DNA of 38,024 nucleotides from positions 1 to 38,024 of IMG/VR virus record IMGVR_UViG_3300035162_001736, one strand, 5' to 3'. The notes under the pieces were generated by a model. That model was not told the origin of the DNA, searched no databases, and was given only the letters and a program-made list of their open reading frames with translations. The first letter of the stretch is position 1, and every line of letters begins with the position of its first letter. Made by a program: the position numbers and the translations under genes. Positions 5,726 to 38,024 of the stretch are shown here, piece by piece. Origin of the DNA: a virus.

Positions 5726-8248
5726 TTATTTGGCCGCAGATCGCCGGCTATAAGATCCCGCTGAAATTGTTTGCAACTTGGTTTTGGTTTCGTTTTGCAA
5801 CTGTCTCATTGTGTCAAGAGCCTGCTGTATAATATCTCTACGAGCCTCAAGACTTTTAGAGCTAGTTCCTTGAAGATCTAGATTAGCTGCTCGCTCTCCA
5901 TCAGAGATGTTTCCTCCAAAAGTCGCCTTCAATGTCATTAACGCGCCTTTAGACAGCACATTCATCAGCTTCTCAGTATTCATATACTTTTCGCTGTCAG
6001 GGTCTGTTATTGATGCTACACCTTTCGCTAGCGTATCAGCGATGCTGTTTGTGTATGAGTTTTCGTTTAGCGTCAGAGCCTCTTCAAGCAAGTTTATAGC
6101 AGCTCCCTGCGAGAGTATGTCTGCATCAGTTTTAGCTTTAAGATCTATCTCTTTATTGGTCAGCTGATTGGCCTGCATGGTCAGCGTCTTTATCTCCAAG
6201 TCTTTTCTCTCTTCTTCTCTGTCATACCAATCTGTTATTTGGTTAGTGTACTCATCTGTTCCAACTTCAAATCCCATTTCAAGGGCTATTAGACCTGCTT
6301 CAGACTGAGGAGTTTTTGTTTTTAAATCAGCGTCATATGCTCTCTGCTCTTGGAGGCTCAGTAAATCATAGTCTCTTTGATCTTTTAAAGTTTGTGACTC
6401 TCTTTCCCAATCCAGAAACATTTCTTGAAGGCGCTCATTGCGCTGACGCTCTCCTGCCGCTAGGGTTTTGTCAGACTCTAATTGCTCTTGTAAAAGCCCC
6501 ATTCCGAACTGAGCAGACTGAAGTCTCAAGGCATCGCCTTGTGTTCCTGCCTCTCTTCTTTCAGAGGCAACGTCTGCCAGGACTGTGTTTACATTTCCCA
6601 AGCCTTCAAAGAAATTTCCGGTCTCTGTAGGCTTGCCTAGCGCCGCAGCGATCCTAAACCATTTTTCAGATTCAGATGGACCTTTACTCTGACTCGTAGC
6701 CATATCCTCAATTAAGGACTGGAAGTCACTTGCGCTTTGATTATAGCTATCCTGACTAGAAGCTATGCCTGCGTCATAAGACGTGCCTTGGTTATTTTTC
6801 AGCATAGTCAGCATTTCTTGCATGCTCTCAGACCGACTCGGCGCAGCCGCGGCTTGTATCATGACATCCATATCCAGAGGATCTCCGGTAAGAGTCACAT
6901 CGAGCTCTTCTTCTTCAACAAAATCGACAGGATTTTGAACAAACCGATGGCCTGGGTTACTCGCCAAATCTCCGGCAGCGTAACCTTTAATTGCGCCTCC
7001 TCTGGCCATAAGCTGAGGTCCAAACAAGTCAAAATTTTCAAAATCCAAACCCAAATCAAAATCTACATCGGAGCCAATTATGTTGCCGGTGTTTAGATTT
7101 GAGTCATCTGTAACTGTCCAAGTATCGTTATTAATAAGATCTGAGTTAAAGTTAGATCCGCCACCAGGAGTGTAAATGTCGGAATAATCATAATCAATTG
7201 GCACTCCATTCGCGTCTACTATTGTGCCGTCAGAATTTACTGTGTTTCCCGATACGGGCGTTGATGTTCCTGGAAACTGCAGAGGTCCATTAAACGTAGT
7301 TCCTGGAATCGTTATAGTTCCATTATCTGACAGAACAATATCGTCGATAGTAAATGTTACTGGCTCGCCATCGGCATTGTTAAACTCAAAATCACCTTCT
7401 GTGCCGCCACCAGTATTGTCATTGCCACCAGTATTGTCATTGCCACCAGTATTGTCATTGCCGCCAGTATTGTCATTGCCACCAGTATTGTCATTACCGC
7501 CAGTATTGTCATTACCGCCAGTATTGTCATTACCGCCAGTATTGTCATTACCGCCAGTATTGTCATTACCGCCAGTATTGTCATTACCGCCAGTATTGTC
7601 ATTACCGCCAGTATTATCGCCGCCGCCTATCGGAACCCCACCATAGCCATAAACATTTCCGGTATTAACTGGAGCACTCAAAACATTGCCGTAGTAATTG
7701 CCGCTCTGGTTCATCACATTTTGATTACCAGTGTTGTTTATTCCTCGCTGGGCGAATTCAGTCTCTGCATTTCTAAGGAAGGCATTGCGCTCAGCATCGC
7801 TGACTTGTCGATTTTCGTCTTCGTAGGCTCTTTGCCTTTCTTCAGGAGTAGGGCCATAGCCAATCGCCATTGGCCAAACGTCACCGAGCTTATTCTCATT
7901 CTCTCGGCCCAAATACTTTTGATACATTTCATTGACAGTATCGGGAGTCTCGCTAGCTGGCCTCTTTGACTGGCTGAATTGTTGCTGAGCATACATCGGC
8001 GTGTTCTGCAGGCGCTGATCATATTGAGCTGCGTAAGTGTCATACGCTGCTTTGTCGGCGTCATAATTCGCTAGCTGTGCGTTGTAAGCCTCAAGCTGAG
8101 CCGCTTCGGTTATAGCCTCTTCAGCAGCATTTTTCTTAGTCGCGTCATAAGCAAATGTCTCGCCAGGATTCCGAGCCCCAGCATAGCCCAGCTTAGAAGC
8201 CGAGCCGATACCGTATTGTTGCTTCAGTCTGTTAAGATTAAATCCCAT
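5726..8248 (-). CDS. Large virion protein with a GGNDNT repeat linker
   Basis: This 840-aa protein has a helical N-terminus rich in Tyr, Ala and Gln (residues 1-115). A low-complexity linker of eleven perfect GGNDNT hexapeptides plus one variant sits at about residues 211-285. A beta-rich Asp/Asn/Thr/Gly region follows (about 285-415), then a MARGGAIKGYAAGD motif near residue 415. The long C-terminal helical half carries Gln/Glu-rich coiled coils. It lies among the large internal-protein genes, so it is probably a virion or ejection component. The repeat linker looks flexible. No enzymatic domain is seen. Confidence 0.6.
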   Translation of the reverse strand: MGFNLNRLKQQYGIGSASKLGYAGARNPGETFAYDATKKNAAEEAITEAAQLEAYNAQLANYDADKAAYDTYAAQYDQRLQNTPMYAQQQFSQSKRPASETPDTVNEMYQKYLGRENENKLGDVWPMAIGYGPTPEERQRAYEDENRQVSDAERNAFLRNAETEFAQRGINNTGNQNVMNQSGNYYGNVLSAPVNTGNVYGYGGVPIGGGDNTGGNDNTGGNDNTGGNDNTGGNDNTGGNDNTGGNDNTGGNDNTGGNDNTGGNDNTGGNDNTGGNDNTGGGTEGDFEFNNADGEPVTFTIDDIVLSDNGTITIPGTTFNGPLQFPGTSTPVSGNTVNSDGTIVDANGVPIDYDYSDIYTPGGGSNFNSDLINNDTWTVTDDSNLNTGNIIGSDVDFDLGLDFENFDLFGPQLMARGGAIKGYAAGDLASNPGHRFVQNPVDFVEEEELDVTLTGDPLDMDVMIQAAAAPSRSESMQEMLTMLKNNQGTSYDAGIASSQDSYNQSASDFQSLIEDMATSQSKGPSESEKWFRIAAALGKPTETGNFFEGLGNVNTVLADVASERREAGTQGDALRLQSAQFGMGLLQEQLESDKTLAAGERQRNERLQEMFLDWERESQTLKDQRDYDLLSLQEQRAYDADLKTKTPQSEAGLIALEMGFEVGTDEYTNQITDWYDREEERKDLEIKTLTMQANQLTNKEIDLKAKTDADILSQGAAINLLEEALTLNENSYTNSIADTLAKGVASITDPDSEKYMNTEKLMNVLSKGALMTLKATFGGNISDGERAANLDLQGTSSKSLEARRDIIQQALDTMRQLQNETKTKLQTISAGSYSRRSAAK
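7406..7603 (-). repeat. Eleven 18-bp tandem repeats encoding GGNDNT
   Basis: Eleven uninterrupted 18-bp units, differing only at synonymous wobble bases (gccacc or gccgcc; attg or atta), encode Gly-Gly-Asn-Asp-Asn-Thr. A degenerate twelfth unit (GGGDNT) follows. The near identity points to recent slippage or recombination and predicts copy-number variation between relatives. Confidence 0.95.
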
Positions 8249-8260
8249 TTCAAGCTCCTG

Positions 8261-11200
8261 TTAGCCGGCTAGACCCCGGTATGTGGAAAATCCTGCGCCT
8301 AGTTGCGCCAGCGGAGAAGGACTATATGTGGACCCAGTTGTCGATCCAGACGTTGATACGCGATTAGGCGTAATAGGCGCCATACCGCGCACTTGAGTGC
8401 TAAGCCAATCCATCTGCTGCTGAGGATAACGCTGCTGATCCAGAAATTCTTTTTCAGCGGCTGATAATTGATTCTGCAGCTGCATTTGTTCTGCTTGTCC
8501 AGCCGCTTCAAGAGCACTTAAATCTCTATAGTTAGCTTGCTGACCGGCAATTGCCATATCTCCCATGCTCTGCAATGCGCCAATTTGTCGATTGTAATCT
8601 TGTGCCTTAGCCTGCTGTACTTGCGAAGCCGCGTTAAGCCCCAACTGTTGTTGGCTTAGACCTGCATTACTTCGGCTCTGCGCTAGATTGCCCAGCTGAG
8701 ACATTTGCTGACCTGATAGCTGGCCGGTTGTTGAGCCCAAGCCAGCAAGCTGAGAAGCCTGCTGCCCTGTTAGCTGACCCATGTTCTGGCCTATCTGAGC
8801 CTGACGACTGGCGTCTTGACCCATCAACTGTCCTGCTGTAGACGCAGCCTGCATCTGGCGCGCTGCATCTGCATTGGTCATCTGACCTGCTACTCCTGCG
8901 GCCTGAAATTGTCGTGCGGCATCTTGACCAGTTAACTGTCCTGCTGTGCTTGCTAGCTGCGCCTGGCGCGCTGCGTCAGCATTAGTCAAAGACCCTAACT
9001 GACTAGCAATTTGAGCTTGTCTTGCCGCGTCAGCGTTAGTAAGGGCTCCTAGCTGAGTACCAGCCTGAATCTGTCTGGCTGCATCCTGTCCTGTAAGTTG
9101 TCCCAACTGGCTAGCAATTTGAGCTTGTCTTGCTGCATCCGCATTCGTAAGAGCTCCTAGTTGAGTACCAGCTTGAATCTGTCTGGCCGCATCCTGTCCA
9201 GTAAGTTGTCCCAACTGACTAGCAACTTGTGCTTGTCGAGCAGCATCTGCATTTGTAAGAGCTCCTAGTTGAGTGCCAGCCTGCAGCTGTCTTGCTGCGT
9301 CCTGACTTGTGAACTGGCCCATCTGGCTAGCAACTTGAGCTTGTCTTGCTGCGTCAGCGTTAGTAAGAGCTCCTAGCTGAGTCCCAACCTGAAGTTGTCT
9401 TGCCGCGTCTTGTCCAGTAAGTTGTCCCATTTGACTAGCAACTTGTGCTTTTCGGGCAGCATCTGTATTTGCAAGAGCTCCTAGTTGCGTACCAACCTGA
9501 AGTTGCCTGGCTGCATCTTGTCCAGTAAGTTGCCCCATTTGGCTAGCAACTTGTGCTTTTCGAGCAGCATCTGTATTTGCAAGAGCTCCTAGTTGCGTAC
9601 CAACCTGAAGTTGCCTGGCTGCATCTTGTCCAGTAAGTTGCCCCATTTGGCTAGCAACTTGTGCCTGTCTTGCTGCATCTGCATTCGTAAGCTGACCCGC
9701 TTGAGAAGCAGCTTCCATTTGACGGCTAGCATCTTGATTTGTTAGCTGACCCATAGTTGATGCAAGCTGCGCCTGTCTTGCTGCGTCAGCATTTGTAAGC
9801 TGACCTGCTTGAGAAGCAGCTTGCATTTGTCTTGCTGCGTCCTGACTTGTGAGCTGGCCCATTTGGCTGGCAACTTGAGCCTGTCTTGCTGCGTCTTGAC
9901 TTGTTAGCTGGCCTGCCTGTGCTCCTAGTTGAGAGTATTGTCCTGCTCCCTGTAATGTGCGACCTAAATCAGCACCAGAAATGCTGCCTACTGTTCCCGC
10001 AAGGCTAGCTTGACGTGCCTTGTCAGCTGCTGAGGCTTGCATAGCCTGAGCATAACCCTGCTGCATCATTGGAGCCTGCTGCCTTAGAACAGACTCTTGC
10101 GTGTCTCTTAGAGCCCTAGATCCGAATTCGCCCATATTTCTACTGCCGAACTGACCTGCTCTTATAAAAGAATCTGAGACCCCAGGAAGTAGATTCTCAG
10201 TCAGATTCCGAGCTCCTTGCTGCGCGATTGCATCCATGACATTCGTTTGATACGGATTCATGTACTGATCTATATTAGACACAGAAGACTGAGATGCTTG
10301 CTGTAAATAAGGGTTAGCGGCATTCAAAGCCTTGTCTGCTAACGCCTGGGCGGTAGTGTTTTGAGATTGAGTCATGTAAGGGCTAGCCGCGCTCATCCCG
10401 CTGGCCCCAGCCGCTTGCTGAAGAAGAGGATTGGCTGAATCAAAAGCACTCGCTGACACGCCGGCCTGCAAATAAGGATTGGCTGCATTCATGCCGCTAG
10501 CCGATCCTGCCGCTTGAATATACGGGCTAGCCGCATTGACGCCGCTTGCAGAAGTTCCGGCTTGCAGATAAGGATTGGCCGCTCCCATACCGCTTGCACT
10601 AGCAGCTTCTTGAAGCAAAGGATTAGCAACGTCAAAAGCATTTGCTTCTGCCGCTCTTTGAAGCATAGGGTTAGCTGCTTCCATACCGCTTGCACTAGCA
10701 GCTTCTTGAAGCAAAGGATTAGCAACGTCAAAAGCATTTGCTTCTGCCGCTCTTTGAAGCATGGGATTAGCTGCTTCCATACCGCTTGCACTAGCAGCTT
10801 CTTGAAGCAAGGGATTGGCAACGTCAAAAGCATTTGCCTCTGCTGCTCTTTGAAGCATAGGGTTAGCAGCATTCAGGCTGCTAGCCGCGCCCGCCTGCTG
10901 AAGCATAGGATTTGCAGCATCAAAAGCACTTGCCGCAGCTGCCTGCTGAATCATAGGATTTGCTGCATTCAAGCTGCTTGCTGCGCCCGCCTGCTGAAGC
11001 ATGGGATTAGCAGCATCAAAAGCACTTGCCGCAGCTCCCTGCTGAAGCATAGGATTTGCTGCATTAAATCCGCTTGCTGCGGACGCCTGCTGAAGCATAG
11101 GATTTGCAGCATTCAAGCCGCTAGCTGCAGCTCCTTGCTGAAGCATAGGATTTGCAGCATTCATGCCGCTAGCTGCGGCCGCTTGCTGAAGCATAGGATT

Positions 11201-11854
11201 AGCAGCATTCATGCCGCTAGCTGCGTTTGCAGCGCCCATGTAACCGCTAGCGGCATCCATAGCATTAGCAGCTGAACCGGCTTGTAAATAAGGATTAACG
11301 GCATCCAATGAGCTTGCAGAAGCGCCAGATTGCAGATAAGGATTAGCTGCGTCAGATGCGCTCATTCCTGCCGCTGCAGTTAAGTAGGGAGACGCTGAGC
11401 CGACAATATTATTTGCATTTGTTTGAGCCTGAGTTAGCAAAGGCTGTGCAGAGCCTAAAATATCCATGTTGCCAGCGCTCGTAAATAAATCCTGTCCGGC
11501 ATTTAAGTTTTTACCAGCCAAAGAAGTTGCCGCTGGATTCAGGTATGAGCCTTGAGCAGTAGATAAGGTGGCAGAAGTTCCGTTAGCAGACTGGGCCTCC
11601 ATAGCGGCCTGAGCTTTTTCTAAATTTGTTTTGTAAGCTCCCTGAGCATTTGCAATTCCGGTATAAGCGTCTTGCTGATTCTGAGAAAGACCAGCAACAG
11701 TCGGCAGCGAATAGTCTTCATAAGGCTTGTTGGCTATGTTTGTGGCCCAATTTACCTGATTAAAGATAGCATCCTGCATCCACTTCGGCGTTTCCGTTGT
11801 GCTCGCGCTATAAGTAGTAGCGGTTTGTGGCGTTCCTTGAAATATGCTACCCAT
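8261..11854 (-). CDS. Giant dual-repeat virion protein, putative ejection or tape-measure-like
   Basis: This 1197-aa protein has four parts. The N-terminal domain (residues 1-167) includes ETPKWMQDAIFNQVNWATN and resembles a family of uncharacterised marine-phage structural proteins. Residues 168-487 are 20 tandem copies of a 16-residue unit (NAANPMLQQAAAASGM type). A non-repeat spacer (488-647) follows. Residues 648-1061 are 23 copies of an 18-residue unit (GQLTNADAARQAQVASQM type). The C-terminal domain contains QQRYPQQQMDWLS. It is Ala/Gln/Ser-rich with no Trp or Cys in the repeats. Eighteen residues equal five alpha-helical turns, so the second block could form a long helix with a straight stripe. 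The start and the upstream gene's stop overlap as TAATG. Function is inferred from position only. Confidence 0.65.
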   Translation of the reverse strand: MGSIFQGTPQTATTYSASTTETPKWMQDAIFNQVNWATNIANKPYEDYSLPTVAGLSQNQQDAYTGIANAQGAYKTNLEKAQAAMEAQSANGTSATLSTAQGSYLNPAATSLAGKNLNAGQDLFTSAGNMDILGSAQPLLTQAQTNANNIVGSASPYLTAAAGMSASDAANPYLQSGASASSLDAVNPYLQAGSAANAMDAASGYMGAANAASGMNAANPMLQQAAAASGMNAANPMLQQGAAASGLNAANPMLQQASAASGFNAANPMLQQGAAASAFDAANPMLQQAGAASSLNAANPMIQQAAAASAFDAANPMLQQAGAASSLNAANPMLQRAAEANAFDVANPLLQEAASASGMEAANPMLQRAAEANAFDVANPLLQEAASASGMEAANPMLQRAAEANAFDVANPLLQEAASASGMGAANPYLQAGTSASGVNAASPYIQAAGSASGMNAANPYLQAGVSASAFDSANPLLQQAAGASGMSAASPYMTQSQNTTAQALADKALNAANPYLQQASQSSVSNIDQYMNPYQTNVMDAIAQQGARNLTENLLPGVSDSFIRAGQFGSRNMGEFGSRALRDTQESVLRQQAPMMQQGYAQAMQASAADKARQASLAGTVGSISGADLGRTLQGAGQYSQLGAQAGQLTSQDAARQAQVASQMGQLTSQDAARQMQAASQAGQLTNADAARQAQLASTMGQLTNQDASRQMEAASQAGQLTNADAARQAQVASQMGQLTGQDAARQLQVGTQLGALANTDAARKAQVASQMGQLTGQDAARQLQVGTQLGALANTDAARKAQVASQMGQLTGQDAARQLQVGTQLGALTNADAARQAQVASQMGQFTSQDAARQLQAGTQLGALTNADAARQAQVASQLGQLTGQDAARQIQAGTQLGALTNADAARQAQIASQLGQLTGQDAARQIQAGTQLGALTNADAARQAQIASQLGSLTNADAARQAQLASTAGQLTGQDAARQFQAAGVAGQMTNADAARQMQAASTAGQLMGQDASRQAQIGQNMGQLTGQQASQLAGLGSTTGQLSGQQMSQLGNLAQSRSNAGLSQQQLGLNAASQVQQAKAQDYNRQIGALQSMGDMAIAGQQANYRDLSALEAAGQAEQMQLQNQLSAAEKEFLDQQRYPQQQMDWLSTQVRGMAPITPNRVSTSGSTTGSTYSPSPLAQLGAGFSTYRGLAG
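8672..9913 (-). repeat. 23 tandem 54-bp repeats (18-residue units)
   Basis: 1242 bp, exactly 23 x 54, encode units of the form G-[QA]-L-T-x-x-D-A-A-R-[QK]-x-Q-x-[AG]-[ST]-Q-x. Even and odd units often alternate (GQLTGQDAARQ versus GALxNxDAAR), giving a 108-bp higher-order repeat, nearly identical between about 9400 and 9660. The last three units are degenerate. Confidence 0.93.
10394..11353 (-). repeat. 20 tandem 48-bp repeats (16-residue units)
   Basis: 960 bp, exactly 20 x 48, encode units like [ND]AANPMLQQAAAASGM. Each carries an Asn-Pro helix breaker followed by a short Ala-rich helix. Units 11-16 (10586-10873) form three almost identical 96-bp copies, a recent higher-order duplication. 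A 21st unit is decayed. Confidence 0.93.
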
Positions 11855-13731
11855 TATGCAATTCCTTGTCTTAGATAATTTAGAGGCGACTTGGCGTTAG
11901 GGCTGAATTTGCCTTTAGCTAAGACTTTTCCTTTGTGCGATCTAATTCCTTCGCGCATACCATTCAACGCCTCTGCGCCAGCCTTGCTCGATCCGTCACC
12001 TAACATCGATACTGTCTCTGCATCTACCACATATTCGCCATCGCTGAGATAGGCCGGTATTTCATCAGATCTTCCCGTACCGCCGCCCCTGACGTAGCGA
12101 GAGGCTTTCTCAAGCGCGCCTCCTTGATTCATACGCATCGGACCTCCTCGATAGTAACCGCTAAAATCACTACTCGTACCCGTAGACTGCATGTTGTACT
12201 GGCCAGACGTTAAGTTATTAAAATTCTGCGCCATAAATTCAGTCAAAGACAGGTTGGCTCGATTAGCGTCTTGACGCACCGCATCCCAATCCCATGAAGT
12301 GAGAGGCCGATTAAAATACTCTTGCTGCTCTGGGGACATAGTGGAAACAGCATCGACGACATCAACAGGTGTATCAGGTTCCATCATTCCCATGGCTCCC
12401 AAGCCCAACATTCCAGCTGCCATTTTATTGTCACCAATCCAGTCCCTTGCGCTGTCAAACATTCCGGGAGTAGATGGCATCGGCCTGTTCTGCATATCGA
12501 GATACGGCTGCTGCAAATCTGCGCCAATATTTCCTGCAGCAAAATTAGCAGAAGGATCAAGACCGGCAGCAAAGGGATCGTTTGAGTTCAGGCTTATAAA
12601 CTCGTTTTGTTTTGCTGCCATTATATCGTCAAAAGTAGTTCCTTCAGGTACTTGCCCTGGCGCTAATGGCGCTCCGGCCTGTCCAGTTTGCTTGATACCA
12701 TCTACTACAGCTTCAGAAGGCTTTGGACCAGATAACAAAGACTTTCCTGCGCTAAAGAGACCTGCTGTAGCCCCTCCTTGCAACGACTCTCTTGGAGTGT
12801 AGCCCGCTGTCAGCATATTTCCCGTAGCGTCTACTCCAGACTGTATTGCGCCCTGGAAAGCGTTTGGCGCTCCTGTGCCAGAGCCTGTTCCTGCAAAGTT
12901 TTTGAGAAGCTGGCCACCTGCTCCCTGCAGTGCTCCTTGCTTAAAGCCATCTCCACTGACCACTCCTGCCGCGCCGCCAACTAAGCCGCTGCCCAGCGTT
13001 GCCGCCATCGGAGCTGACAAACCTAAATTCAAACCTTGATTTATTGCGTCTCCGGCTACGTTACCAATTCCTCCTGTAATGCCGCCCATGATAGCGCCGC
13101 GCTTCCAGTCGCCGCCTGTTGCAGCAGCCGTGCCTGCGCCGACGATTGAGCTACCCACTACTGCCGCAGCAGTTCCAGTAAGCCCCAGGCTAGTCCCTAT
13201 AGCAGTGCCGAGACCCGGAGCAAAAACCATCAGAGCAACAGGCAACACTGTTTTTAAAGTCTTCTTCAGGCTTTTATACTCTGCCAATCCAGTGTTTGGG
13301 TTTACCGTGCCTTGACCGCCCATTCTTCGCAATACTTCAGCTTCACGAGGATTAATGTGAGCCAGCATGCTATCGCCGCCCTGCCCTTGATTAGCTAAAC
13401 GCCTGCCGGCAACAGTTAAGCCGCCACGAGCATAGCCTTGAGCCATGCCTCGTTCTTGAAGACCATAAAGCGCCATTAAAATTGAGATGATAAAAACCGC
13501 ATCAAACTCTGCGGGAGCATCGCCCTCATCAATTAAGCCGTCAGCAATTGCAGCCTGTACCATTTCGGCGTACATAGCTGGATTCTCAAGAGCCGCTTCA
13601 AGCATCTCAATCGCTTCGTCTAAGTCCTCTGGGACCATAGCCGTGCGAGATAGGCGCTCCTCGATGATATCAATACCCTGGCCGAACTCCGGGCTCTGGC
13701 TGGCCAATTCTAATATTTGTTCCCTAATCAT
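11854..13731 (-). CDS. Large virion-associated protein with glycine-zipper core
   Basis: This 625-aa protein has an acidic helical N-terminus (residues 1-95) and a GYARGGLTVAGRR motif near residue 99. Hydrophobic Gly/Ala segments (about 163-260, for example LPVALMVFAPGLGTAIGTSLG split over several stretches) could be membrane-inserting. A linker rich in Pro/Gly follows. The C-terminal domain holds YYRGGPMRMNQGG, RYVRGGGTGRSDEIPAYLSDGEYVV and a basic tail; the SDEIPAYLSDGEYVV type segment recurs in marine phage structural proteins. It is probably an internal or ejection protein. Start is ATG; the gene overlaps the repeat-protein gene by one base. Confidence 0.6.
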   Translation of the reverse strand: MIREQILELASQSPEFGQGIDIIEERLSRTAMVPEDLDEAIEMLEAALENPAMYAEMVQAAIADGLIDEGDAPAEFDAVFIISILMALYGLQERGMAQGYARGGLTVAGRRLANQGQGGDSMLAHINPREAEVLRRMGGQGTVNPNTGLAEYKSLKKTLKTVLPVALMVFAPGLGTAIGTSLGLTGTAAAVVGSSIVGAGTAAATGGDWKRGAIMGGITGGIGNVAGDAINQGLNLGLSAPMAATLGSGLVGGAAGVVSGDGFKQGALQGAGGQLLKNFAGTGSGTGAPNAFQGAIQSGVDATGNMLTAGYTPRESLQGGATAGLFSAGKSLLSGPKPSEAVVDGIKQTGQAGAPLAPGQVPEGTTFDDIMAAKQNEFISLNSNDPFAAGLDPSANFAAGNIGADLQQPYLDMQNRPMPSTPGMFDSARDWIGDNKMAAGMLGLGAMGMMEPDTPVDVVDAVSTMSPEQQEYFNRPLTSWDWDAVRQDANRANLSLTEFMAQNFNNLTSGQYNMQSTGTSSDFSGYYRGGPMRMNQGGALEKASRYVRGGGTGRSDEIPAYLSDGEYVVDAETVSMLGDGSSKAGAEALNGMREGIRSHKGKVLAKGKFSPNAKSPLNYLRQGIA

Positions 13732-13733
13732 CG

Positions 13734-18668: not shown

Positions 18669-18973
18669 TAGGCAGCATTCAGCGCGTCAATTTGCGCTTG
18701 CAGTCTAGCTATCTCGGCAACTTTTGGGTCAACCCAATCAGCTACTTCAGTCCACGTTGTGCCATCAAAAGTGTAACGGTTTCCCTGCCAGTCAGCCGGA
18801 GCTGTCACGCCAGTGTGCAGAGTCGCATTGCCAGAGTGCATATCGCCGATGTAGAAATCAGGGTCAGCGTCATCGCCTACCGTGATTCTGTCAGCACCCA
18901 TTGTGACGTTTTTCGCGTCATCAAAGATGTAAGGCGAACGCCCTGTGTCGTTAAAAGTTAATGTCTTACTCAT
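18668..18973 (-). CDS. Small virion-associated hypothetical protein
   Basis: This 101-aa protein has an N-terminal beta-rich half (DDAKNVTMGADRITVGDDAD) and a DWQGNRYTFDGTTWTEV segment. A C-terminal helix (EIARLQAQIDALNAA) could form a short coiled coil for trimerisation. Such C-terminal helices appear on small tail proteins and fiber chaperones. Its place directly downstream of the three propeller genes suggests it serves the fiber, possibly as a cap or assembly factor. Confidence 0.55.
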   Translation of the reverse strand: MSKTLTFNDTGRSPYIFDDAKNVTMGADRITVGDDADPDFYIGDMHSGNATLHTGVTAPADWQGNRYTFDGTTWTEVADWVDPKVAEIARLQAQIDALNAA

Positions 18974-20439
18974 TATGAATCTCCGTTCAAAAGTAGTGAT
19001 GTTGTCGATATTGCTAGTCCTGCGTTGACGCTGCTGCTCACAGTGGTTACGGTTCCATCGTCCTGCACATAGTATTTAGAGCCAGTGGTTAAGCTGCTTA
19101 ATCCTGTAGCCGTACCGCCCTGCACAACAACTGTACCCGTAGCCGAACTGGATATGGCTGCGTCTGCTATGCCTACGAAGTCGGCTGAGTTGGTTGAAGT
19201 TCCCGGCGGAGTGTATACAGTAGCTTGCCCAGAAATATTCCCTCTATTGTATGCAGTAACTACTTTGTTTTCAGTGGAACTGTACGCAGACCCTATATCA
19301 GGAGAAGGCCCACCAGAATTAAGAATAAGAGCTGACCCAAAAGTTATGCTGCTGCCAGAAACAACGCCCGAAATAATACGTGCGTAAAAAGAATTAGATG
19401 CACCCCCTTGGTATGATACAACAATATTACCACCAGAAGAGTCATACGTTGTTGAGACATAGCCACTTATAGCCGCGGTTTCAAAAACAACCGCCGTACC
19501 GAAACTAAGGCTTGTACCGCTTACCGTGCCTACTACGGCTGTTCCGTAGTCGCTATTAGAGTTATCTCTATAGGCAACGACTACCCTTTCGTTAGCAGAA
19601 TCATAAGCTATGGAGTAAAAAGTACGGCTTGAAGCACTAGTATAAGTAGCTTCAGTACCAAAACTAATACTTGTACCAGACACAGTTCCGACTCTTGCTT
19701 TTCCTCCTGAAGTACCCTGCCCTTTGTATGAAACAATCGTTTTTTCATTAGCAGAATCATAAGTGGAGGTTACGTAGGAAAGGGCAGAAGAATAAAAAGT
19801 AACAGCACTACCAAAAGAAATGCTTGTTCCGCTAACTGTACCGACTATCGCTTTGCCAAGATCACCTGCGTCAGCATCTGCAAAGAAAACTACTACTTTC
19901 CCAGAAGCCGTATCGAACACTGGAGCGGGGTTAAAAGTTGCGCTTGAAGTAAATGTAACAACAGACCCAAATGAAATTGAAGTGCCTGAAACAGTTCCAA
20001 TTTTTGCGCTGCCTGCGTAATTACTAGCGTCGTTACTGTAAATAACTACTACTTTCCCCGCAACAGAGTCAAAAGTTGCGCCGTTTTGGTTTGTTGCACC
20101 GCTGTTATAGACGACAGGAGTGCCAAAACTAATCGATCCTCCTGAAATAGTTCCAACTGACGCAGTCCCATAAGAGCTATTTCCAGAATCTCTGTAGGTT
20201 ACAATTATTTTGTTGTTTGTAGAATCATAAGTTACCGAGTTTTCATTGGGAAGTGAGTATGAAGCATCAAAAGTACCTGCCACGCCTACTGCTTGAGGTA
20301 TACTAGTTTCAGCAACAGCACTAACCGTCCCAGCACTGTTAAGAATGACAGGCGCTTTGCTGGTAATGTTTGCCGTGGCTACCGCTTCAATGGTCTTACC
20401 AGAAGCACCCGCAGGAAGTAAGTCAGAAAGATTGCTCAC
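18973..20439 (-). CDS. Propeller-type tail fiber/receptor-binding paralogue 3
   Basis: This 488-aa protein starts with GTG overlapping the previous stop (GTGA). The N-terminal anchor SNLSDLLPAGASGK and VILNSAGTV is shared with the two upstream paralogues. Residues of about 60-430 hold seven repeats of about 52 residues with the pattern YDS-x3-K-x-VVxY, then VGTVSGTSISFG, like blades of a seven-bladed beta-propeller. The C-terminal segment SKYYVQDDGTVTTV is also shared. Blades here are the most regular of the three. Propellers with variable loops suit glycan or surface binding, so a receptor-binding role is an inference. Confidence 0.65.
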   Translation of the reverse strand: MSNLSDLLPAGASGKTIEAVATANITSKAPVILNSAGTVSAVAETSIPQAVGVAGTFDASYSLPNENSVTYDSTNNKIIVTYRDSGNSSYGTASVGTISGGSISFGTPVVYNSGATNQNGATFDSVAGKVVVIYSNDASNYAGSAKIGTVSGTSISFGSVVTFTSSATFNPAPVFDTASGKVVVFFADADAGDLGKAIVGTVSGTSISFGSAVTFYSSALSYVTSTYDSANEKTIVSYKGQGTSGGKARVGTVSGTSISFGTEATYTSASSRTFYSIAYDSANERVVVAYRDNSNSDYGTAVVGTVSGTSLSFGTAVVFETAAISGYVSTTYDSSGGNIVVSYQGGASNSFYARIISGVVSGSSITFGSALILNSGGPSPDIGSAYSSTENKVVTAYNRGNISGQATVYTPPGTSTNSADFVGIADAAISSSATGTVVVQGGTATGLSSLTTGSKYYVQDDGTVTTVSSSVNAGLAISTTSLLLNGDS

Positions 20440-21974: not shown

Positions 21975-23473
21975 CCGGTGTAGTCCTTAATGTTGATTTG
22001 GGTGGCTGTTATGGCTTGACCAATAAGCTGCGCGGGGGAGGCACTGGCTGTGGTTATCGTGCCATCTTCTTGCACGTAGTAGTCAGAGCCAATTGTAAGG
22101 CTTGTCTGAGCTTCGTTCCTGCTACCCCATGTGTTTATCGTTCCGGTAGCAGTATCCAGAATAGCTCCTGAAGCTATGCCCAAGAGGTTGGTTGCGGTGA
22201 GGTTTGCATAATCCCCCGCCAGTGTCATAACATTAGCTACGGCTAAATCTGAACCCGTAGAAGCATAAGCAATAATATTTCTTTCTGCTGTGCTGTCGTA
22301 ATAAACAACAGGGTGACCAGAAAAAGCCCCAGAAAATGCTACCGTCGCGTCCCAAGCTATGGTTGATGCTCCAACCGCTCCAACATTGTAATAAAGTTTA
22401 TAATCACTATTTTTTTTATGTAACGTAACTACTCTATCCTTGGCGATATTATAAGAAGTTGAGAGAGCATCACCGTAAACGGTAGATGCGCTGGATATTA
22501 GAACGGTGGGTGTTGTCCATGTCAGTTGTCCCGGGTAACCCACGCTAGACCCGTTTGTTCCCAAAGTATAATAAACATAATTATCAGAACTATTCTGATA
22601 AGTCGCTACATATCTAGCAATGCTAGAGTCGTAAGCCAAGGTAACATTACTTTCAACAGTGGGCGAGAATGATAGAGAAACAGTAGCCATCGACCAAGCA
22701 CTAGCACTCAATGTAAATGTTTTACCAATTCCAAACTTATTAGCGCCCGAAGTGTATCTACTTGCTATCATAAACCCATCTGTACCGGTAATATTAACGA
22801 GCTGCGCTTGCCCGTTGAGAGTACTGTTTCCAGTATTGTCCAAAAGATCGGCAGTTATTGTGGTTCCCGAAACAGTCAACCTATAAACAAAAGCATAGTT
22901 ATAGCGATTTACCACACATACTGTGGCATTTCTTACGGAGCTATAAGCTAACGCTTGGGCGGTCATATAAGTAGCAGTCGAAAAAAGCGTAATTTCAGTC
23001 CCAAAAACGATTGTTTTTGTAGCCGCCGTTATTGTTCCGCATCGCGCATACTGATAACCACTGGCGTCAAGGTATGTCGCTATAATCTTCCCACCGCCAA
23101 TAGAACAAACAGAGGCAGGATTACTGGAATTAGAAGAGGCTTTAACTTGTACCGGAGTTCCCCATACCGTAGTACTGCCCGAAATAGCACCGATAACTAC
23201 ATGCCAGTAGTTGCTAACACCACCGTTACGATAAATTAAAACTTGAGTGTTGGTAGCTGCATCAAAACAGCCCCCAAGCATCTGTACTGAGTTGCCTCCA
23301 TTAAAGTCGGAATCTGCTCCTAGATTAGTAGATACAGTCTCGACGGCAACCTGCGCAGCCTTACCCGCCGCCGTCAGGATCACAGGCTTACCCGAGGTTA
23401 TCGCCCCGTCAGCAACAAAGTCGGTATTATTCTGACCGCCTCCTGCGGGGATCAGCTCGGAAAGATTGCTCAT
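21971..23473 (-). CDS. Propeller-type tail fiber/receptor-binding paralogue 1
   Basis: This 500-aa protein has the same plan as its two neighbours: anchor SNLSELIPAGGGQN and FVADGAITSGKPVILTAAG, then about seven diverged repeats (CFDAATNTQVLIYRN, VIGAISGSTTVWG; YYDSTAERNIIAYAS), and the C-terminal SDYYVQEDGTITTA. The units are longer and less regular than in the third paralogue. The first gene of the trio, it starts one base within the stop of the upstream fiber gene. A role in host recognition is inferred from the repeat plan and fiber context. Confidence 0.65.
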   Translation of the reverse strand: MSNLSELIPAGGGQNNTDFVADGAITSGKPVILTAAGKAAQVAVETVSTNLGADSDFNGGNSVQMLGGCFDAATNTQVLIYRNGGVSNYWHVVIGAISGSTTVWGTPVQVKASSNSSNPASVCSIGGGKIIATYLDASGYQYARCGTITAATKTIVFGTEITLFSTATYMTAQALAYSSVRNATVCVVNRYNYAFVYRLTVSGTTITADLLDNTGNSTLNGQAQLVNITGTDGFMIASRYTSGANKFGIGKTFTLSASAWSMATVSLSFSPTVESNVTLAYDSSIARYVATYQNSSDNYVYYTLGTNGSSVGYPGQLTWTTPTVLISSASTVYGDALSTSYNIAKDRVVTLHKKNSDYKLYYNVGAVGASTIAWDATVAFSGAFSGHPVVYYDSTAERNIIAYASTGSDLAVANVMTLAGDYANLTATNLLGIASGAILDTATGTINTWGSRNEAQTSLTIGSDYYVQEDGTITTASASPAQLIGQAITATQINIKDYTG

Positions 23474-25049: not shown

Positions 25050-26705
25050 TTACCCTAGTGCAACAGCTAACGCTATTACATCATCAGTCGTTACGCCAGC
25101 AGCCGGAGTAGATGAAGTCCAGGCAGAGCCAGTAGAAGTAAGCACGTTACCGCTGGCGCCAGGGGCGGTTATTCCCGTGCCTCCGTTCGCTGCAGCTAAC
25201 GTGCCTGCCAATGTTATGTCGCCGGTAGTGCCTGTATTCGGAGTTAACCCGGTAGATCCTGCGCTAAAGCTAGTCACTGCTGCCGTTACCGCTGTCGTCC
25301 ACACAAAAGCTGAACCATTCCACTTTAAGAATGTGTCCGTTACAGTGGGAGCAGTTAAAAAATCGCTGGCCCCTGAGCCTGTATTATACACTATTCTATT
25401 TGCAGCTCCTCCCGCTACATTAGTAGCGCTTGCGGCAGTGCCGGATATTGAAATACCCCAAGTTCCTGTTGCGCCTGTTCCGTCAGTCTGAGGAGCGCCA
25501 ACATTTGCTGCAGTCAACACGACAACGCCTGTCTGTCCATTCACCGATACAACAGTGTTCGATTGATCTATTTTCTGCCAAACGGCTCCGCTAAATACCG
25601 CCCAATCTCCTACCTGCCAGTCTGTTATTCCGTCAAGATTGGTTGTTCCTGCAACGTCTACTATATAATAATGACCCTGAGTTCCAGCCCCTGAAGCCAA
25701 TGTAGGGGAGTTTGTTGCTGCGTTCCACACACCTTGATATGCCAACCCTGTCTGGAAAGAAGCCGTTGTTACTCCGGTTATTACGCCTTTTGCGTCAACT
25801 GTGACAACTGGTATTAAAGCAGCAGATCCGTATGTTCCAGCAGTTACGCCAGAGGCAGGTAAATCAGCGTTAACCAAAGCTCTGAAAGATGTCGGGGCAT
25901 CGGCGCCAGCGGCTGGACCTCCGTAAAACACATTGGCTGGCTGATCAGTCTGAATAAGAGCAGATCCCCAGGTGTAAGCTCCTGTGCCGCCAGATACTAA
26001 AACTTGTCCAGAGGCGCCTGCCGTTCCTAATCTTATGGTGCTTCCGCCGCCGTAAGCTATAGCTCCAGGGGCGCTAGCATTGGATATTCCCGTGCCTCCC
26101 TGGTCAATAGGCAAAACGCCGTCAATTTGATTTTGATCTGATAGATCTACCGGAGGATGCTGATGGTCTCCTCGTGAGAGCTCGGTCAAAGTTCCCGCAC
26201 TTCCATTAGTCGTTCCGGTTAATGGCGCGGTGTCTTCAAAGTCTGCCGTCAAAGTTACGTTGGCGTTAAGGTTTCCTCCGCCTTCTAAACCTGCCCCAGC
26301 AATTATCTGCCGGCTAGTGGGTACATAACCAGTGATAACCGCAGGAACTGAAGATATTGCTGTAATACGCCCTGTCGCGTCTAACGTGACAACAGGGATA
26401 TTAGTGCCATCGCCATAAGTTCCCGCAGTAGCGCCACTGGCCGCTAGCTGAGCCGTTCCTACGCCTCCGTTAGCAATACTGAGAGTAACATCGGCGCTAA
26501 GAGGTCCGCCGCCTGTCATTCCAGTTCCGGCTATAACTTGCCGAGTTGTTGGCACTCCAGCTACTTGAAGAAGGTCTCCAGCTCGAATCTGATAGCTGAC
26601 TCCTTGATAAGTAAAAAGAAGCAGTCCGTCAGCAGATGCAACTGGAGCAGTAGGAAGCTGAGTAACTCTGCTAGGTATTAAATTACTTGGAACATTTGCG
26701 GTCAT
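25050..26705 (-). CDS. Long tail fiber protein
   Basis: This 551-aa protein is rich in Thr, Gly, Ala and Val with repeated shaft motifs. TAGTYG..IPVVT(L/V)DAxGxIT appears twice, GDHQHPPVDLSD once (a pattern seen in many fiber shafts), LPIDQGGTG once and AAANGGTGITAPG near the end. TVVSVNGQTGVVVLTAANVGA is a classic fiber module. The block LAYQGVWNAATNSPTLASG to GDWAVFSGAVWQKI (about residues 318-390) resembles a carbohydrate-facing insertion. The start overlaps the upstream stop by one base. Confidence 0.75.
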   Translation of the reverse strand: MTANVPSNLIPSRVTQLPTAPVASADGLLLFTYQGVSYQIRAGDLLQVAGVPTTRQVIAGTGMTGGGPLSADVTLSIANGGVGTAQLAASGATAGTYGDGTNIPVVTLDATGRITAISSVPAVITGYVPTSRQIIAGAGLEGGGNLNANVTLTADFEDTAPLTGTTNGSAGTLTELSRGDHQHPPVDLSDQNQIDGVLPIDQGGTGISNASAPGAIAYGGGSTIRLGTAGASGQVLVSGGTGAYTWGSALIQTDQPANVFYGGPAAGADAPTSFRALVNADLPASGVTAGTYGSAALIPVVTVDAKGVITGVTTASFQTGLAYQGVWNAATNSPTLASGAGTQGHYYIVDVAGTTNLDGITDWQVGDWAVFSGAVWQKIDQSNTVVSVNGQTGVVVLTAANVGAPQTDGTGATGTWGISISGTAASATNVAGGAANRIVYNTGSGASDFLTAPTVTDTFLKWNGSAFVWTTAVTAAVTSFSAGSTGLTPNTGTTGDITLAGTLAAANGGTGITAPGASGNVLTSTGSAWTSSTPAAGVTTDDVIALAVALG

Positions 26706-28083: not shown

Positions 28084-28305
28084 TTAGTCCCAGCTGTGCT
28101 TCATGGTTCCCATTTTTTTAAAGCCTGCGACTTCACCGCCTTTGCTATAGCCTTGGGCGCTACTCATATTGCCTGAATAAGCTCGGTTTCCCATGGACTT
28201 TTCCATGCCCATGCCTTCATTGCGTCGAGCTTTCATAGACTGACTTTTTTTGCCGTTTCTGGCGCCCATTGAGTCGTCTAATCGATCATTATATCCTTGT
28301 CTCAT
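28084..28305 (-). CDS. Small basic KGG-motif protein
   Basis: This 73-aa protein is strongly basic and Met/Gly/Ser-rich (MKARRNEGMGMEKSMGN), and probably disordered. It carries AQGYSKGGEVAGF, the same GYSKGG motif that is tandemly repeated in the protein at 33731. It might bind DNA or coat a virion component; I know of no characterised family. A 66-base gap with a small hairpin separates it from the gp4-like gene. Confidence 0.6.
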   Translation of the reverse strand: MRQGYNDRLDDSMGARNGKKSQSMKARRNEGMGMEKSMGNRAYSGNMSSAQGYSKGGEVAGFKKMGTMKHSWD

Positions 28306-28316
28306 GAAAATATCCT

Positions 28317-28832
28317 CTATGTCATCTTAGAAAATGATTTAGCGAGATTAGCTCGCTTCATCGTTTTAGCAGACGGCTTAGGGCCACCCGCAATTGCTGG
28401 TTTTCCCGCAGCAACTTTGTTTAATTTGCTTTTTGGAATGCTTTGCCCTTCAGGAGTGTCCATATACTCACGAAGAGCACCCGGCTTTTTTACAGCACCC
28501 TTAATCCAGTCTTTTTTAGACCCGCCTGTAGATGCGCGAAAACCTTTTTCAGCTTCACCGCGCAGCCTGGTCATTTCATCACGAGCATTACGCTCACGGG
28601 AGCCAACACGAGCTATTTGCGCTCTTTTGTCCATGCGCTCAGCAGCATCATTTGACCTACGGCTCTCAACTCTACGCTTTTCATCGGCTGCGTTATCCTG
28701 GACGCCGATTACGCGAGCCTCCTCTTGACGAATATTTTTCATACCGCCCCGATTCATTTTTACAGGCCCAGAAGACTTTGTGAATCCAAAGTCTGAAGGA
28801 AACTCAAATTCATCGATATAATTAATGGTCAT
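28317..28832 (-). CDS. Basic helical hypothetical protein
   Basis: This 171-aa protein is rich in Arg, Lys and Glu. A short N-terminal region leads to VKMNRGGMKNIRQEE (a GG motif shared with other virion proteins here). A long charged helix follows (residues of about 48-95, DEKRRVESRRSNDAAERMDKR split across it), then a Lys/Pro-rich tail. It may package with DNA or act in head assembly. Start is ATG at 28832, overlapping the upstream gene's stop by one base. No family is recognised. Confidence 0.6.
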   Translation of the reverse strand: MTINYIDEFEFPSDFGFTKSSGPVKMNRGGMKNIRQEEARVIGVQDNAADEKRRVESRRSNDAAERMDKRAQIARVGSRERNARDEMTRLRGEAEKGFRASTGGSKKDWIKGAVKKPGALREYMDTPEGQSIPKSKLNKVAAGKPAIAGGPKPSAKTMKRANLAKSFSKMT

Positions 28833-29473: not shown

Positions 29474-29483
29474 GATTTACTCC

Positions 29484-29852: not shown

Positions 29853-29922
29853 GATAAATTCCTCACATGCGAGTTAAAAGATTTGATTGCTGTCTGCATG
29901 TAGTCAGCCGAAGCTGTCAGCA

Positions 29923-29983: not shown

Positions 29984-29992
29984 GATACTTAC

Positions 29993-30907: not shown

Positions 30908-30920
30908 TTTTTAGACCTCC

Positions 30921-31514: not shown

Positions 31515-31546
31515 ACTGTTGCTCCTTTGGTTAAATAGATTGCTCG

Positions 31547-32083: not shown

Positions 32084-32115
32084 ATCTAGTCGCTCCTTTT
32101 TTCAGCGATTGCTTC

Positions 32116-32132
32116 AGTATGTATTATATACT
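32116..32132 (-). promoter_or_regulatory. Possible promoter or operator between scaffold and next gene
   Basis: In the 77-base gap, leftward reading gives AGTATATAATACATACT, a near-palindrome (one mismatched pair) that contains a consensus TATAAT. No good -35 hexamer lies 16-18 bases upstream, so a standard sigma70 promoter is weak. It could serve as an operator or a phage-specific element. Confidence 0.35.
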
Positions 32133-32160
32133 TATATTAGCGCAAGTGGTTTGTTTTTGA

Positions 32161-33105: not shown

Positions 33106-33120
33106 TACTCATCTCCTTTA

Positions 33121-33540: not shown

Positions 33541-33718
33541 TTTTATCCTCATCTATTAAGTTTAAGAGCACGTCTATGGACGCTTCATATCCAGCGACCA
33601 TTCCTACACGATACCCGTACTCGAAAGTGTCGCGTTTTTGAGGTCTCTTCAAGGCTTCAAGCGCAAATTCTGCTTGATTGGCTTTGAGGAGATTCAGAAG
33701 TTTTGAGTCTATATTCAT
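33521..33718 (-). CDS. Small hypothetical protein
   Basis: This 65-aa protein is a mixed helix pair (LLNLLKANQAEFALEALK; VGMVAGYEASIDVLLNLID) with a charged end (DEDKNGKQDL). It overlaps the start of the co-chaperonin gene by 20 bases and could be translated in coupling with it. No family is recognised. Confidence 0.5.
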   Translation of the reverse strand: MNIDSKLLNLLKANQAEFALEALKRPQKRDTFEYGYRVGMVAGYEASIDVLLNLIDEDKNGKQDL

Positions 33719-33730
33719 TAAGCATTATTC

Positions 33731-33928
33731 TTAGGCTGGCGTATTGCCAGAGCCTTGGTTGACTTTAAATCCAGCGGCCATACGCTTGTGCTGAGATACT
33801 TGATCTGAATTCATATTTACTTGGCCACCTTTGGCGTAGCCTTTAGTTTTCATCTTGCCACCTTTTGAGTAGCCCTTTGTTTTCATTGCGCCACCCTTAG
33901 AGTAGCCTTTAGTCTTCATGTTGTTCAT
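33731..33928 (-). CDS. KGG tandem-repeat micro-protein
   Basis: This 65-aa protein from the ATG at 33928 has a GAGGAAGACAAAA ribosome site; a longer reading upstream would only add residues from an overlapping frame. Three near-perfect 11-residue units at its start read MKTKGYSKGGA, MKTKGYSKGGK and MKTKGYAKGGQ. A basic tail follows (SQHKRMAAGFKVNQGS). Similar short KGG-rich proteins recur in marine phage contigs without known function. It sits in the head module. A role in binding nucleic acid or in virion assembly is a guess. Confidence 0.7.
   Translation of the reverse strand: MNNMKTKGYSKGGAMKTKGYSKGGKMKTKGYAKGGQVNMNSDQVSQHKRMAAGFKVNQGSGNTPA
33821..33919 (-). repeat. Three 33-bp tandem repeats encoding MKTKGY(S/A)KGG
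   Basis: Three adjacent 33-bp units with mostly synonymous changes encode the 11-residue repeat of the KGG micro-protein. Selection on the peptide rather than on the DNA is suggested by the wobble differences between units. Confidence 0.9.
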
Positions 33929-34610
33929 TTTTGTCTTCCTCTGCATAGAGATTATTAAAAACTTGATTAACGTCGAGAGTATAATCCAAATCAGATTTAC
34001 TGTGATGCGTGTGCTGAGATGGGCGAAACTCTGGCGCCCCTTCTCCTCGCTCAAACCAAGCAGGAGCTGTGACCCTAACGCGATTATTAGGTAGAGCTAT
34101 AATATTTCCTGTCCACTCGCCTGCATCCAGAAGCTCTAGCACATGAGACTGCTTATGCTGTGCCGGGTCATCCGCTATTTCTGAATCGGTGTAATCGACT
34201 GTAAAATAATACTTAGCCGGATAAAATTCGCCGTCTATCTTGGCTAGCCAAGGAGAAGGAGAGCATCTATCCAACTTATAAACACTGTGAGTCCGAGAAG
34301 CACAGTCCCAAGGTTGAGCGTCATGTACGGCCATAGGTTTGGGCCATTCTTGTAACGGTTCGTCTGCAACCAAAGCAGTTATAGGCATTCTGGCCCACAT
34401 TGCTCCTCCATGAACATTAGGTTCATTATCATCATTGTAAGTTTCAGCTCCAGTAAATATAACTTGAAAGCTCAGACACCGTTCTGGCATCGTAGTAACC
34501 GCAACGACCATGGCGTGAATAAACTCGCCGTGAAACTTTTCATGATTGTGCGTGTATTCTTTTCTAACCCAGCATTTAAAATACGGTATGTTGCTCTGTA
34601 GAAATGCCAC
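33909..34610 (-). CDS. Conserved virion-associated protein of unknown function
   Basis: This 233-aa protein begins AFLQSNIPYFKCWVRKEYTH and contains LSFQVIFTGAE, HGGAMWARMPITALVADEP, AQPWDCASRTHSVYKLDRCS, PSPWLAKIDGEFYPAKYYFTVDYTD and WTGNIIALPNNRVRVTAPAW, in that order. I associate this arrangement with a protein conserved next to the portal in marine podovirus-like phages; its role is not known. It lies just downstream of the portal (starts overlap by one base) and its C-terminus overlaps the KGG gene by 20 bases. Several Cys and His residues could bind metal. Confidence 0.65.
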   Translation of the reverse strand: MAFLQSNIPYFKCWVRKEYTHNHEKFHGEFIHAMVVAVTTMPERCLSFQVIFTGAETYNDDNEPNVHGGAMWARMPITALVADEPLQEWPKPMAVHDAQPWDCASRTHSVYKLDRCSPSPWLAKIDGEFYPAKYYFTVDYTDSEIADDPAQHKQSHVLELLDAGEWTGNIIALPNNRVRVTAPAWFERGEGAPEFRPSQHTHHSKSDLDYTLDVNQVFNNLYAEEDKNEQHED

Positions 34611-37204: not shown

Positions 37205-37205
37205 G

Positions 37206-38024
37206 TTAAGCCTCCTGTAGTATTCGGTTGGCGATTTCATTAATCCTGCTAGGGTTATAAATCGCTGGTCCGCCTTCGGCAAAATTCTCAGCCATTATAC
37301 TCTTTGCAATTTTATTTATCTTATCTGCGTCATATTTAGCGTTAACTGCTCCGCCTTTAGAGAATGCATAGTCTATGTCTTCGGCGTTAGTGACCAAGAC
37401 TTCGCCACCTATTAGCTCTTCGCCCCGATTATTCCGACCCTTAACTCCCTTGCCATCAATGTTCCCAATACTGTTAATGATTGCGTCCTTTGCCTCTCGA
37501 CGGCTAAGACCTTGCTCGGCTAAATTAAACCCAAACTTGTTGTTGAAATAGTCTAGATATTCTGACTTAGGATCGCCGCCTTTTAGCTTTTTCTTTGCGC
37601 CTTGATACAGCTCTTTAGCTTGGCTAGCCACAGCTGCGATTTTGCTTTGTCCGGCATCATAAGAGAACAATGCGTGATTGACGGCGTTGAATACTTCTTC
37701 GTCGCCTCTGATCCCAGTGTTTTGTCGAGTTTGATTTGAGCCGTTCTTTGGCATCACCAGCTCTACTCTAAATTGCTCAGGAACGAGACCGGCGTCTACC
37801 ATTTCATTCGTGAGATCTACAGCCTCTTGGCTTATGGCTACTTGACGCTCATGGCCAAAGCCAAGAGCATCGGCGCCTTTCTGAATAGCTTTCTCTATTA
37901 GACCGCCTCCGGCAAAACCTTCTGTCGGATTAGTTGGAGATTGCAGCGCCTCATCCTGTAACCTTACAGCCTGATCGTAATCCTTAACCACAGGGACATC
38001 CTTGGCGCCGCCATAGTAGTCTGA
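37206..38024 (-). CDS. Hypothetical protein with GG motifs, N-terminal part outside window
   Basis: The frame is open through the right edge, so the visible 272 or so residues are the C-terminal part. Visible segments include NPTEGFAGGGLIEKAI, RGDEEVFNAVNHALFSYDAG, GGDPKSEYLDYFNNKFGFN and AFSKGGAVNAKYDADKI, and finally FAEGGPAIYNPSRINEIANR. The NHALFSYDAG...YFNNKFG pattern loosely recalls the DUF6973-type phage proteins, but this is unsure. Its stop codon overlaps the portal ribosome site, so they are co-transcribed. Function is unknown; the GG motifs link it to the KGG micro-protein and the large virion proteins. Confidence 0.55.
   Translation of the reverse strand, partial: SDYYGGAKDVPVVKDYDQAVRLQDEALQSPTNPTEGFAGGGLIEKAIQKGADALGFGHERQVAISQEAVDLTNEMVDAGLVPEQFRVELVMPKNGSNQTRQNTGIRGDEEVFNAVNHALFSYDAGQSKIAAVASQAKELYQGAKKKLKGGDPKSEYLDYFNNKFGFNLAEQGLSRREAKDAIINSIGNIDGKGVKGRNNRGEELIGGEVLVTNAEDIDYAFSKGGAVNAKYDADKINKIAKSIMAENFAEGGPAIYNPSRINEIANRILQEA
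37211..37216 (-). promoter_or_regulatory. Shine-Dalgarno site deciding the portal start
   Basis: AGGAGG (leftward strand) lies six bases before GTG 37204 and is formed by the last codons of the upstream gene. It sets the portal start 26 codons downstream of the longest possible reading. Confidence 0.85.

What the first reader, a model, noticed from the sequence alone, without database searches (positions are those of the whole stretch)
5726..38024. Recurring aromatic-x-x-GG motif across at least six co-transcribed virion genes
GYSKGG (x3 in the 33731 protein, x1 in the 28084 protein), MNRGG (28317), YARGG, YYRGG and YVRGG (11854), MARGG (5726), and FAGGG, FSKGG and FAEGG (37206) share a short pattern of the type [YFM]-x-[RKEG]-G-G. 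The proteins are otherwise unrelated. A common peptide tag could be a binding site for one hub protein, a processing site after GG, or a nucleic-acid contact.
Basis: partly seen in the sequence, partly recalled or inferred. Interest (0 to 1): 0.7.

Follow-up and report, generated by a model that had tools for sequence, protein, structure and literature searches.

The report
Shared peptide tag on phage proteins
Several otherwise different late proteins of an uncultured aquatic phage and its relatives carry the same short peptide, about [Tyr/Phe/Trp/Met]-x-[Lys/Arg/Glu]-Gly-Gly, placed between and after the domains of a giant multi-domain protein and in small basic proteins, so it may be a tag that loads proteins into the virus particle, which has not been tested.

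Summary
The motif is real and above chance: 13 sites in 7 late ORFs against 2.4 in composition-matched shuffles (P = 2e-4). In 330 non-redundant proteins from contigs of uncultured relatives it occurs 154 times against 11.7 expected. It is absent from all 119 early-strand genes of five relatives.

An unbiased scan of GG contexts gives [YFWM]-A-[KRE]-G-G-x-V. The 37206 ORF is the cut C-terminus of a giant protein between terminase and portal. In relatives this protein matches ART-PolyVal and PcfJ, domains of "polyvalent" effector proteins; the motif sits between domains and at the C-terminus, while the domains are swapped. The window's small KGG protein carries the same extended module. KGG-array genes sit beside the 33909-type gene in 103 of 111 loci.

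Most likely a cargo-loading or anchoring peptide for internal, ejected proteins: an inference (about 0.4) by analogy with the T4 capsid targeting sequence and encapsulin targeting peptides. Cleavage, GroEL binding and a shared nucleic-acid contact fit worse. No virion mass spectrometry, binding data or structure was available.

The parts
37206..38024 (-). C-terminal piece (cut by contig end) of the giant polyvalent protein encoded before the portal; DUF6973-like domain flanked by motifs
   Evidence: relatives 767-1993 aa, ART-PolyVal/PcfJ/DUF6973 in homologues
37902..37916 (-). motif FAGGG (YAGGG/YYEGG/YGGGG in relatives), N-terminal border of the domain
37350..37364 (-). motif FSKGG, starts the two-unit C-terminal module (FSKGGAVNAKYDADKINKIAKSIMAEN + FAEGGPAIYNPSRINEIANRILQEA, 37364-37209)
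37269..37283 (-). motif FAEGG, second unit of the C-terminal module
33909..34610 (-). 233-aa protein (phrog_3704 family, labelled ferredoxin/PurM in cyanophages), conserved neighbour of KGG-array genes
33731..33946 (-). small basic KGG-array protein: GYSKGG, GYSKGG, GYAKGGQVNMNSDQV
33824..33904 (-). three motif copies at 33904-33890, 33871-33857, 33838-33824
28317..28832 (-). 171-aa basic protein with MNRGG at residue 26 (28757-28743); M[NS]RGG kept in most orthologues
28084..28305 (-). 73-aa basic protein with GYSKGG (28149-28135)
11854..13731 (-). 625-aa tape-measure-like protein with YARGG (13434-13420), YYRGG (12156-12142), MNQGG (12132-12118), YVRGG (12096-12082); the last precedes GTGRSDEIPAYLSDGEYVVDAETV
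5726..8248 (-). 840-aa late protein with MARGG (7009-6995); motif present in some orthologues at other positions, absent in most
26505..26519 (-). MTGGG in the 25050 fibre-like protein: pattern hit, probably chance

Best explanation
The motif, in its full form [YFWM]-A-[KRE]-G-G-x-V (often continued as [NST]-[YM]-[DN]-[PSA]-x-x-[VI]), is a short linear anchoring peptide carried by proteins destined for the inside of the virion: the giant polyvalent effector protein, small basic KGG proteins, and possibly the tape-measure/ejection-type protein. Proposed working: during head assembly the peptide docks on a constant internal surface (capsid wall, scaffold, portal or ejection complex), so each effector domain with a copy beside it is retained and can be exchanged without losing targeting. 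Shown: enrichment, conservation, placement in linkers and at the C-terminus, domain swapping between copies, confinement to late genes. Inferred: that carriers are inside the particle and that the peptide is what loads them. The docking partner is unknown.
For: Enrichment: window 13 against 2.4; uncultured relatives 154 against 11.7, 154 of 945 GG sites against 15.9 expected. Unbiased consensus. Motif positions border domains: L069 672 | ART 726-852 | 871; L058 1082 | ART 1152-1304 | 1323, near the C-terminus; L049 778 | DUF6973 803-897 | 925, 951. The C-terminal two-unit module is kept while the domain before it is replaced; the window's domain reappears near the N-terminus of L089. Homology-block ends lie within 15 aa of a motif in 20.4% against 8.9% of random positions. 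Late genes 45 hits against 7 expected; opposite-strand genes 0; within G001-G003 confined to polyvalent, post-MCP small, tape-measure-like and one 5726-like protein apart from one low-complexity GRGGGG hit. Same tail on 33731-type and polyvalent proteins, P 0.0004-0.007 for the better-scoring tails. Purifying selection: Arg codons CGT/CGC/CGA/AGA/AGG, or Lys, with the same residue pattern. ART-type polyvalent proteins are thought to be head-packaged and injected (PMC5512222).
Against: No proteomics shows any carrier inside a virion. Other internal-type proteins (8261, 3698) normally lack the motif, so it cannot be the only entry signal. The 11854 sites lack V at +3. No docking partner is identified; no structure could be predicted.
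Confidence: 0.4

Rival explanations
1. Modular linker/recombination joint: the Gly-Gly turn and following helix are a flexible spacer that separates domains, helps large proteins unfold and pass the portal, and at DNA level gives homologous sites for domain shuffling; no partner is bound.
For: Placement between domains and at domain-swap borders; Gly-Gly; repeated copies.
Against: A plain linker would not need aromatic/Met at -3, charge at -1 and V at +3 (60 of 70 in large proteins); the motif is also at protein ends and in tiny proteins with no domains; codons vary while residues stay.
Confidence: 0.22
2. The sites are two or three unrelated things: a KGG-array module linked to the 33909-type gene, the polyvalent [YFW]AEGGxV module, and the GG elements of tape-measure-like proteins, alike by convergence.
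For: Class-specific -1 residue (E in polyvalent, K in small, R in 11854 type) and no V at +3 in 11854 type; KGG arrays occur in many contigs without a window-type portal.
Against: 33731-type tails share further positions with the polyvalent module; both classes occur in the same genomes.
Confidence: 0.2
3. Nucleic-acid contact: KGG arrays condense or bind packaged DNA.
For: 33731, 28084, 28317 have net charge +12, +7, +16; arrays of KKKGYAKGG.
Against: Giant proteins have mostly Glu at -1; carriers 11854, 5726, 37206 are acidic overall.
Confidence: 0.1
4. Processing site cut at or after the motif by a head protease (FAE|GG resembles the AXE| rule).
For: Placement between domains; cleavage of internal proteins is known in T4 and SPN3US (PMC7411985).
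Against: -1 is K, R or E; no protease domain found in the window proteins scanned: the MCP matches only the C-terminal part of the head maturation protease profile; arrays with 11-residue spacing would be shredded.
Confidence: 0.05
5. GroES mobile-loop mimic that recruits host GroEL (the phage encodes its own GroES).
For: GroES loops contain GGI[VL]L (own knowledge); the phage GroES has TSGGILL; the GroES gene is close by.
Against: The motif has no hydrophobic preference at +2, and the phage GroES loop has no aromatic at -3.
Confidence: 0.02
6. Chance or composition of Gly-rich proteins.
For: One or two hits (MTGGG) are of this kind.
Against: Shuffles and relatives.
Confidence: 0.01

Closest known systems
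T4 capsid targeting sequence of internal proteins and Alt
   Same: Short shared peptide on otherwise unrelated proteins, including an ADP-ribosyltransferase, that are packed in the head and ejected (PMC3012670, PMC7411985)
   Different: The T4 CTS is a single N-terminal propeptide of 10-20 aa, cut off by gp21; here copies are internal, C-terminal and multiple, and no protease was found
Encapsulin targeting peptides (cargo-loading peptides)
   Same: Short peptides at C-termini or in disordered regions; a proposed Family 2B motif GPTGLGTSAAR lies between two domains and again at the C-terminus (PMC8346489)
   Different: Sequence differs; host compartments, not phage; docking here not shown
Phage polyvalent proteins (Iyer et al. 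2017)
   Same: Giant multidomain protein with ART-PolyVal and PcfJ domains encoded by virion genes, predicted to be packaged
   Different: My term searches of that paper (motif, linker, glycine) showed no mention of a repeated interdomain peptide
Tape-measure C-terminal element GxGTGxSDxIPAxLSxGEYV
   Same: C-terminus of the 11854 protein; weak PHROG matches to tape measure proteins at 544-606
   Different: The rest of the protein is not a tape measure homologue by sequence; the window looks like a podovirus-type genome

Membership tests
Polyvalent proteins | two or more effector-type domains in one polypeptide, encoded among virion genes | tested here: met
   In homologues: ART-PolyVal 1.6e-15 and PcfJ 1.9e-9 in L058, ART-PolyVal 1.7e-19 in L069, gene next to portal. 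The window's own piece gives only DUF6973 at E 0.11
Polyvalent proteins | packaged in virion and injected | not testable with these tools
   needs virion proteomics
T4-type capsid targeting sequence | N-terminal position | tested here: not met
   copies are internal and C-terminal
T4-type capsid targeting sequence | removed by a head maturation protease | tested here: inconclusive
   no protease family matched among the window proteins scanned; the MCP hits only the C-terminal part of phrog_133
Encapsulin-type targeting peptide | binds inner wall of HK97-fold shell | not testable with these tools
   the MCP matches Phage_capsid_4 and Mu gpT profiles; binding untested, structure prediction switched off
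GroES mobile loop | hydrophobic tripeptide directly after GG | tested here: not met
   +2 is mostly S/P/A/E/T
Prohead protease site | fixed residue at the cut position and a cognate protease | tested here: not met
   -1 is K, R or E by class; no protease found

The most novel reading that the evidence does not exclude
A previously undescribed, widely distributed cargo-loading code of phages: [YFWM]A[KRE]GGxV peptides repeated through giant effector proteins and small accessory proteins, docking on a constant virion surface (or on the 33909-type protein), so that effector domains can be exchanged freely and still be packaged and injected.
Probability: 0.3. Interest if true: 0.85.

Novelty: new variant of a known kind. 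Interest (0 to 1): 0.58.

Why it matters
How phages choose which proteins go into the head is known in detail for only a few models. A short, exchangeable tag shared by effectors would let one predict the injected proteins of uncultured phages from sequence, and might be used to load reporter proteins into capsids. Even if it is only a linker, it marks the domain joints of polyvalent proteins and so helps to find new effector domains.

Tried and rejected
Chance or composition: rejected by shuffles and by relatives. GroES loop mimicry: residues do not fit. Protease site: no protease found, -1 residue variable. One universal hub equal to the 33909-type protein: strong linkage to KGG arrays (103 of 111 loci within 100 bp; conversely 62 of 80 with a motif ORF within 250 bp, 41 of 80 with two or more copies, against 2 of 151 control genes), but motif-rich MW202545 gave no match to it in the 50 kb read, so it is not required. 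Pfam gives no hit above threshold for any carrier of the window. Literature: literal strings YAKGG, YAEGG, FAEGG, and 'KGG motif' with phage, returned no phage paper about the motif. tblastn of a KGG-array protein against named phages found nothing, possibly because of the low-complexity filter.

Full report
What was checked. The window is a 38,024-base virus record (IMG/VR) with a portal (phrog_1216), a GroES, a Mu gpT/Phage_capsid_4 type major capsid protein, two proteins matching the SU10 adaptor family and a virion structural (stabilisation-type) protein in one minus-strand late cluster. Its nearest named relatives by portal are Caulobacter phage RW and its like (49%), with Roseobacter CRP-901/902, Pelagibacter HTVC023P/027P and Phage DSL-LC04 further off.

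Chance. Without the KGG repeat protein it is 10 against 2.31 (P = 2e-4). Counting proteins, the excess is 7 against 2.2 (P = 0.005), so the window alone is suggestive rather than crushing. The relatives settle it: 154 sites against 11.7 +- 3.2 in 330 non-redundant proteins from portal-bearing contigs, and 154 of 945 GG sites against 15.9 expected (sites in related proteins are not fully independent). Looking at all GG dipeptides with no pattern imposed, Y (3.05-fold), F, W and M are enriched at -3, A (2.26) at -2, K and E at -1, V (2.47) at +3.

Where it sits. In relatives the gene just before the portal encodes large proteins (767-1993 residues where long enough contigs exist) with up to seven copies. 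Pfam finds ART-PolyVal, PcfJ and DUF6973 in them, which makes them polyvalent proteins in the sense of Iyer et al. (PMC5512222). Copies lie on both sides of these domains and at or near the C-terminus. The window's 37206 ORF is the last 272 residues of such a protein: FAGGG, a domain of about 180-200 residues, FSKGG plus a helix-like segment, FAEGG plus a helix-like segment, end. Some relatives share only the last 50 or so residues and have another domain in front; L089 has the window's domain near its N-terminus. Ends of homologous blocks between such proteins fall within 15 residues of a motif twice as often as random positions, 20.4% against 8.9%; the shared motif itself may lengthen alignments, so this is supporting evidence only.

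Other carriers. Small basic proteins after the portal (33731) and after the capsid gene (28084, 28317) carry the motif in most orthologues. The tail YAKGGQVNMNSDQV of 33731 and its relatives matches the polyvalent module FAEGGSVSYDPNQV beyond the motif (P 0.0004 to 0.007 for the better-scoring relatives, 0.0016 for QVNMDSDQV; these are related sequences, so about one event). In the 11854 protein YARGGL at residue 100 is kept as [YFM]A[RK]GGL in all window-type orthologues that cover it, with Arg written CGT, CGC, CGA, AGA or AGG, so the protein sequence is selected. But its context (GGL..GR...GDSMLAHINPREAE; GGGTGRSDEIPAYLSDGEYV) differs from the other class, and V at +3 is missing. In 5726 the motif is present in some orthologues only, elsewhere in the protein. 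Proteins 8261 and 3698 lack it, except one 3698-like protein (L090) that has it near the N-terminus and twice near the C-terminus.

Where it is not. In five longer relatives, 119 opposite-strand genes hold none (1.9 expected) and 198 late-strand genes hold 45 (7.0 expected). Portal, adaptors, GroES, scaffold-like, stabilisation and capsid proteins have none in G001-G003.

A linked gene. From the other side, 62 of 80 loci with the 33909-type gene have a motif ORF within 250 bp and 41 have two or more copies, against 2 of 151 control genes with two or more. The 33909-type protein is 66-83% identical to the window's where portal and capsid are only 27-51% identical, which suggests that the pair moves between phages, or is under unusually strong constraint. 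The family (phrog_3704) is labelled ferredoxin or PurM in cyanophages; Pfam and PDB sequence searches give no support for either name.

Mechanism. I commit to an anchoring or cargo-loading peptide (0.4). The anatomy, between domains and at the C-terminus, matches the proposed targeting motif of cyclases associated with Family 2B encapsulins (PMC8346489) and the logic of the T4 capsid targeting sequence, where unrelated internal proteins share only the tag (PMC3012670). Shown are enrichment, conservation, placement, swapping and restriction to late genes. Inferred are internal location, docking and the identity of the dock. It is not filed as a T4-type CTS, because the N-terminal position is not met.

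Limits. No complete genome of the window's virus is held; gene sets were made by a simple longest-ORF caller; many loci are related, so P values on pooled sites overstate independence; no structure prediction could be run; only open-licence papers were searchable.

Noticed in passing
33909-34610 and L104-L215, L256-L335: The 33909-type gene (phrog_3704) and a KGG-array gene form a conserved pair across phages with divergent capsid and portal proteins, in either order; the ferredoxin/PurM labels look unsupported.
   Followed up: partly
L012:1217-1600, L105:2114-2389, L215:492-785: The N-terminal part of the giant polyvalent protein (about 88 aa, phrog_7595) also occurs as a free small protein in other phages, with homologues in Roseobacter phages CRP-1 and SIO1 and Synechococcus phage S-CBS2; in the polyvalent form it is followed by W-A-[EK]-G-G.
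   Followed up: partly
5726-8248 (protein residues about 210-280): The 5726 protein contains about a dozen tandem copies of NDNTGG, a different Gly-Gly repeat.
   Followed up: no
8261-11854: 1197-aa protein built of two sets of degenerate repeats (AANPMLQQAAAASG-like and GQLTxxDAARQxQxASQ-like), motif-free in all relatives.
   Followed up: no
18973-23473: Three adjacent fibre-like proteins with similar starts (M[ST]NLS[ED]L[ILF]PAG) look like tandem paralogues.
   Followed up: no
L007/L216 (record G005), portal gene: The tool reported one TGA and one TAG inside the matched portal stretch of this relative although it also lists an open frame of 895 aa.
   Followed up: no
L090:2-1993: A 3698-like protein with the motif near its N-terminus and twice near the C-terminus, whereas the other orthologues have none: apparent gain of the tag.
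   Followed up: partly
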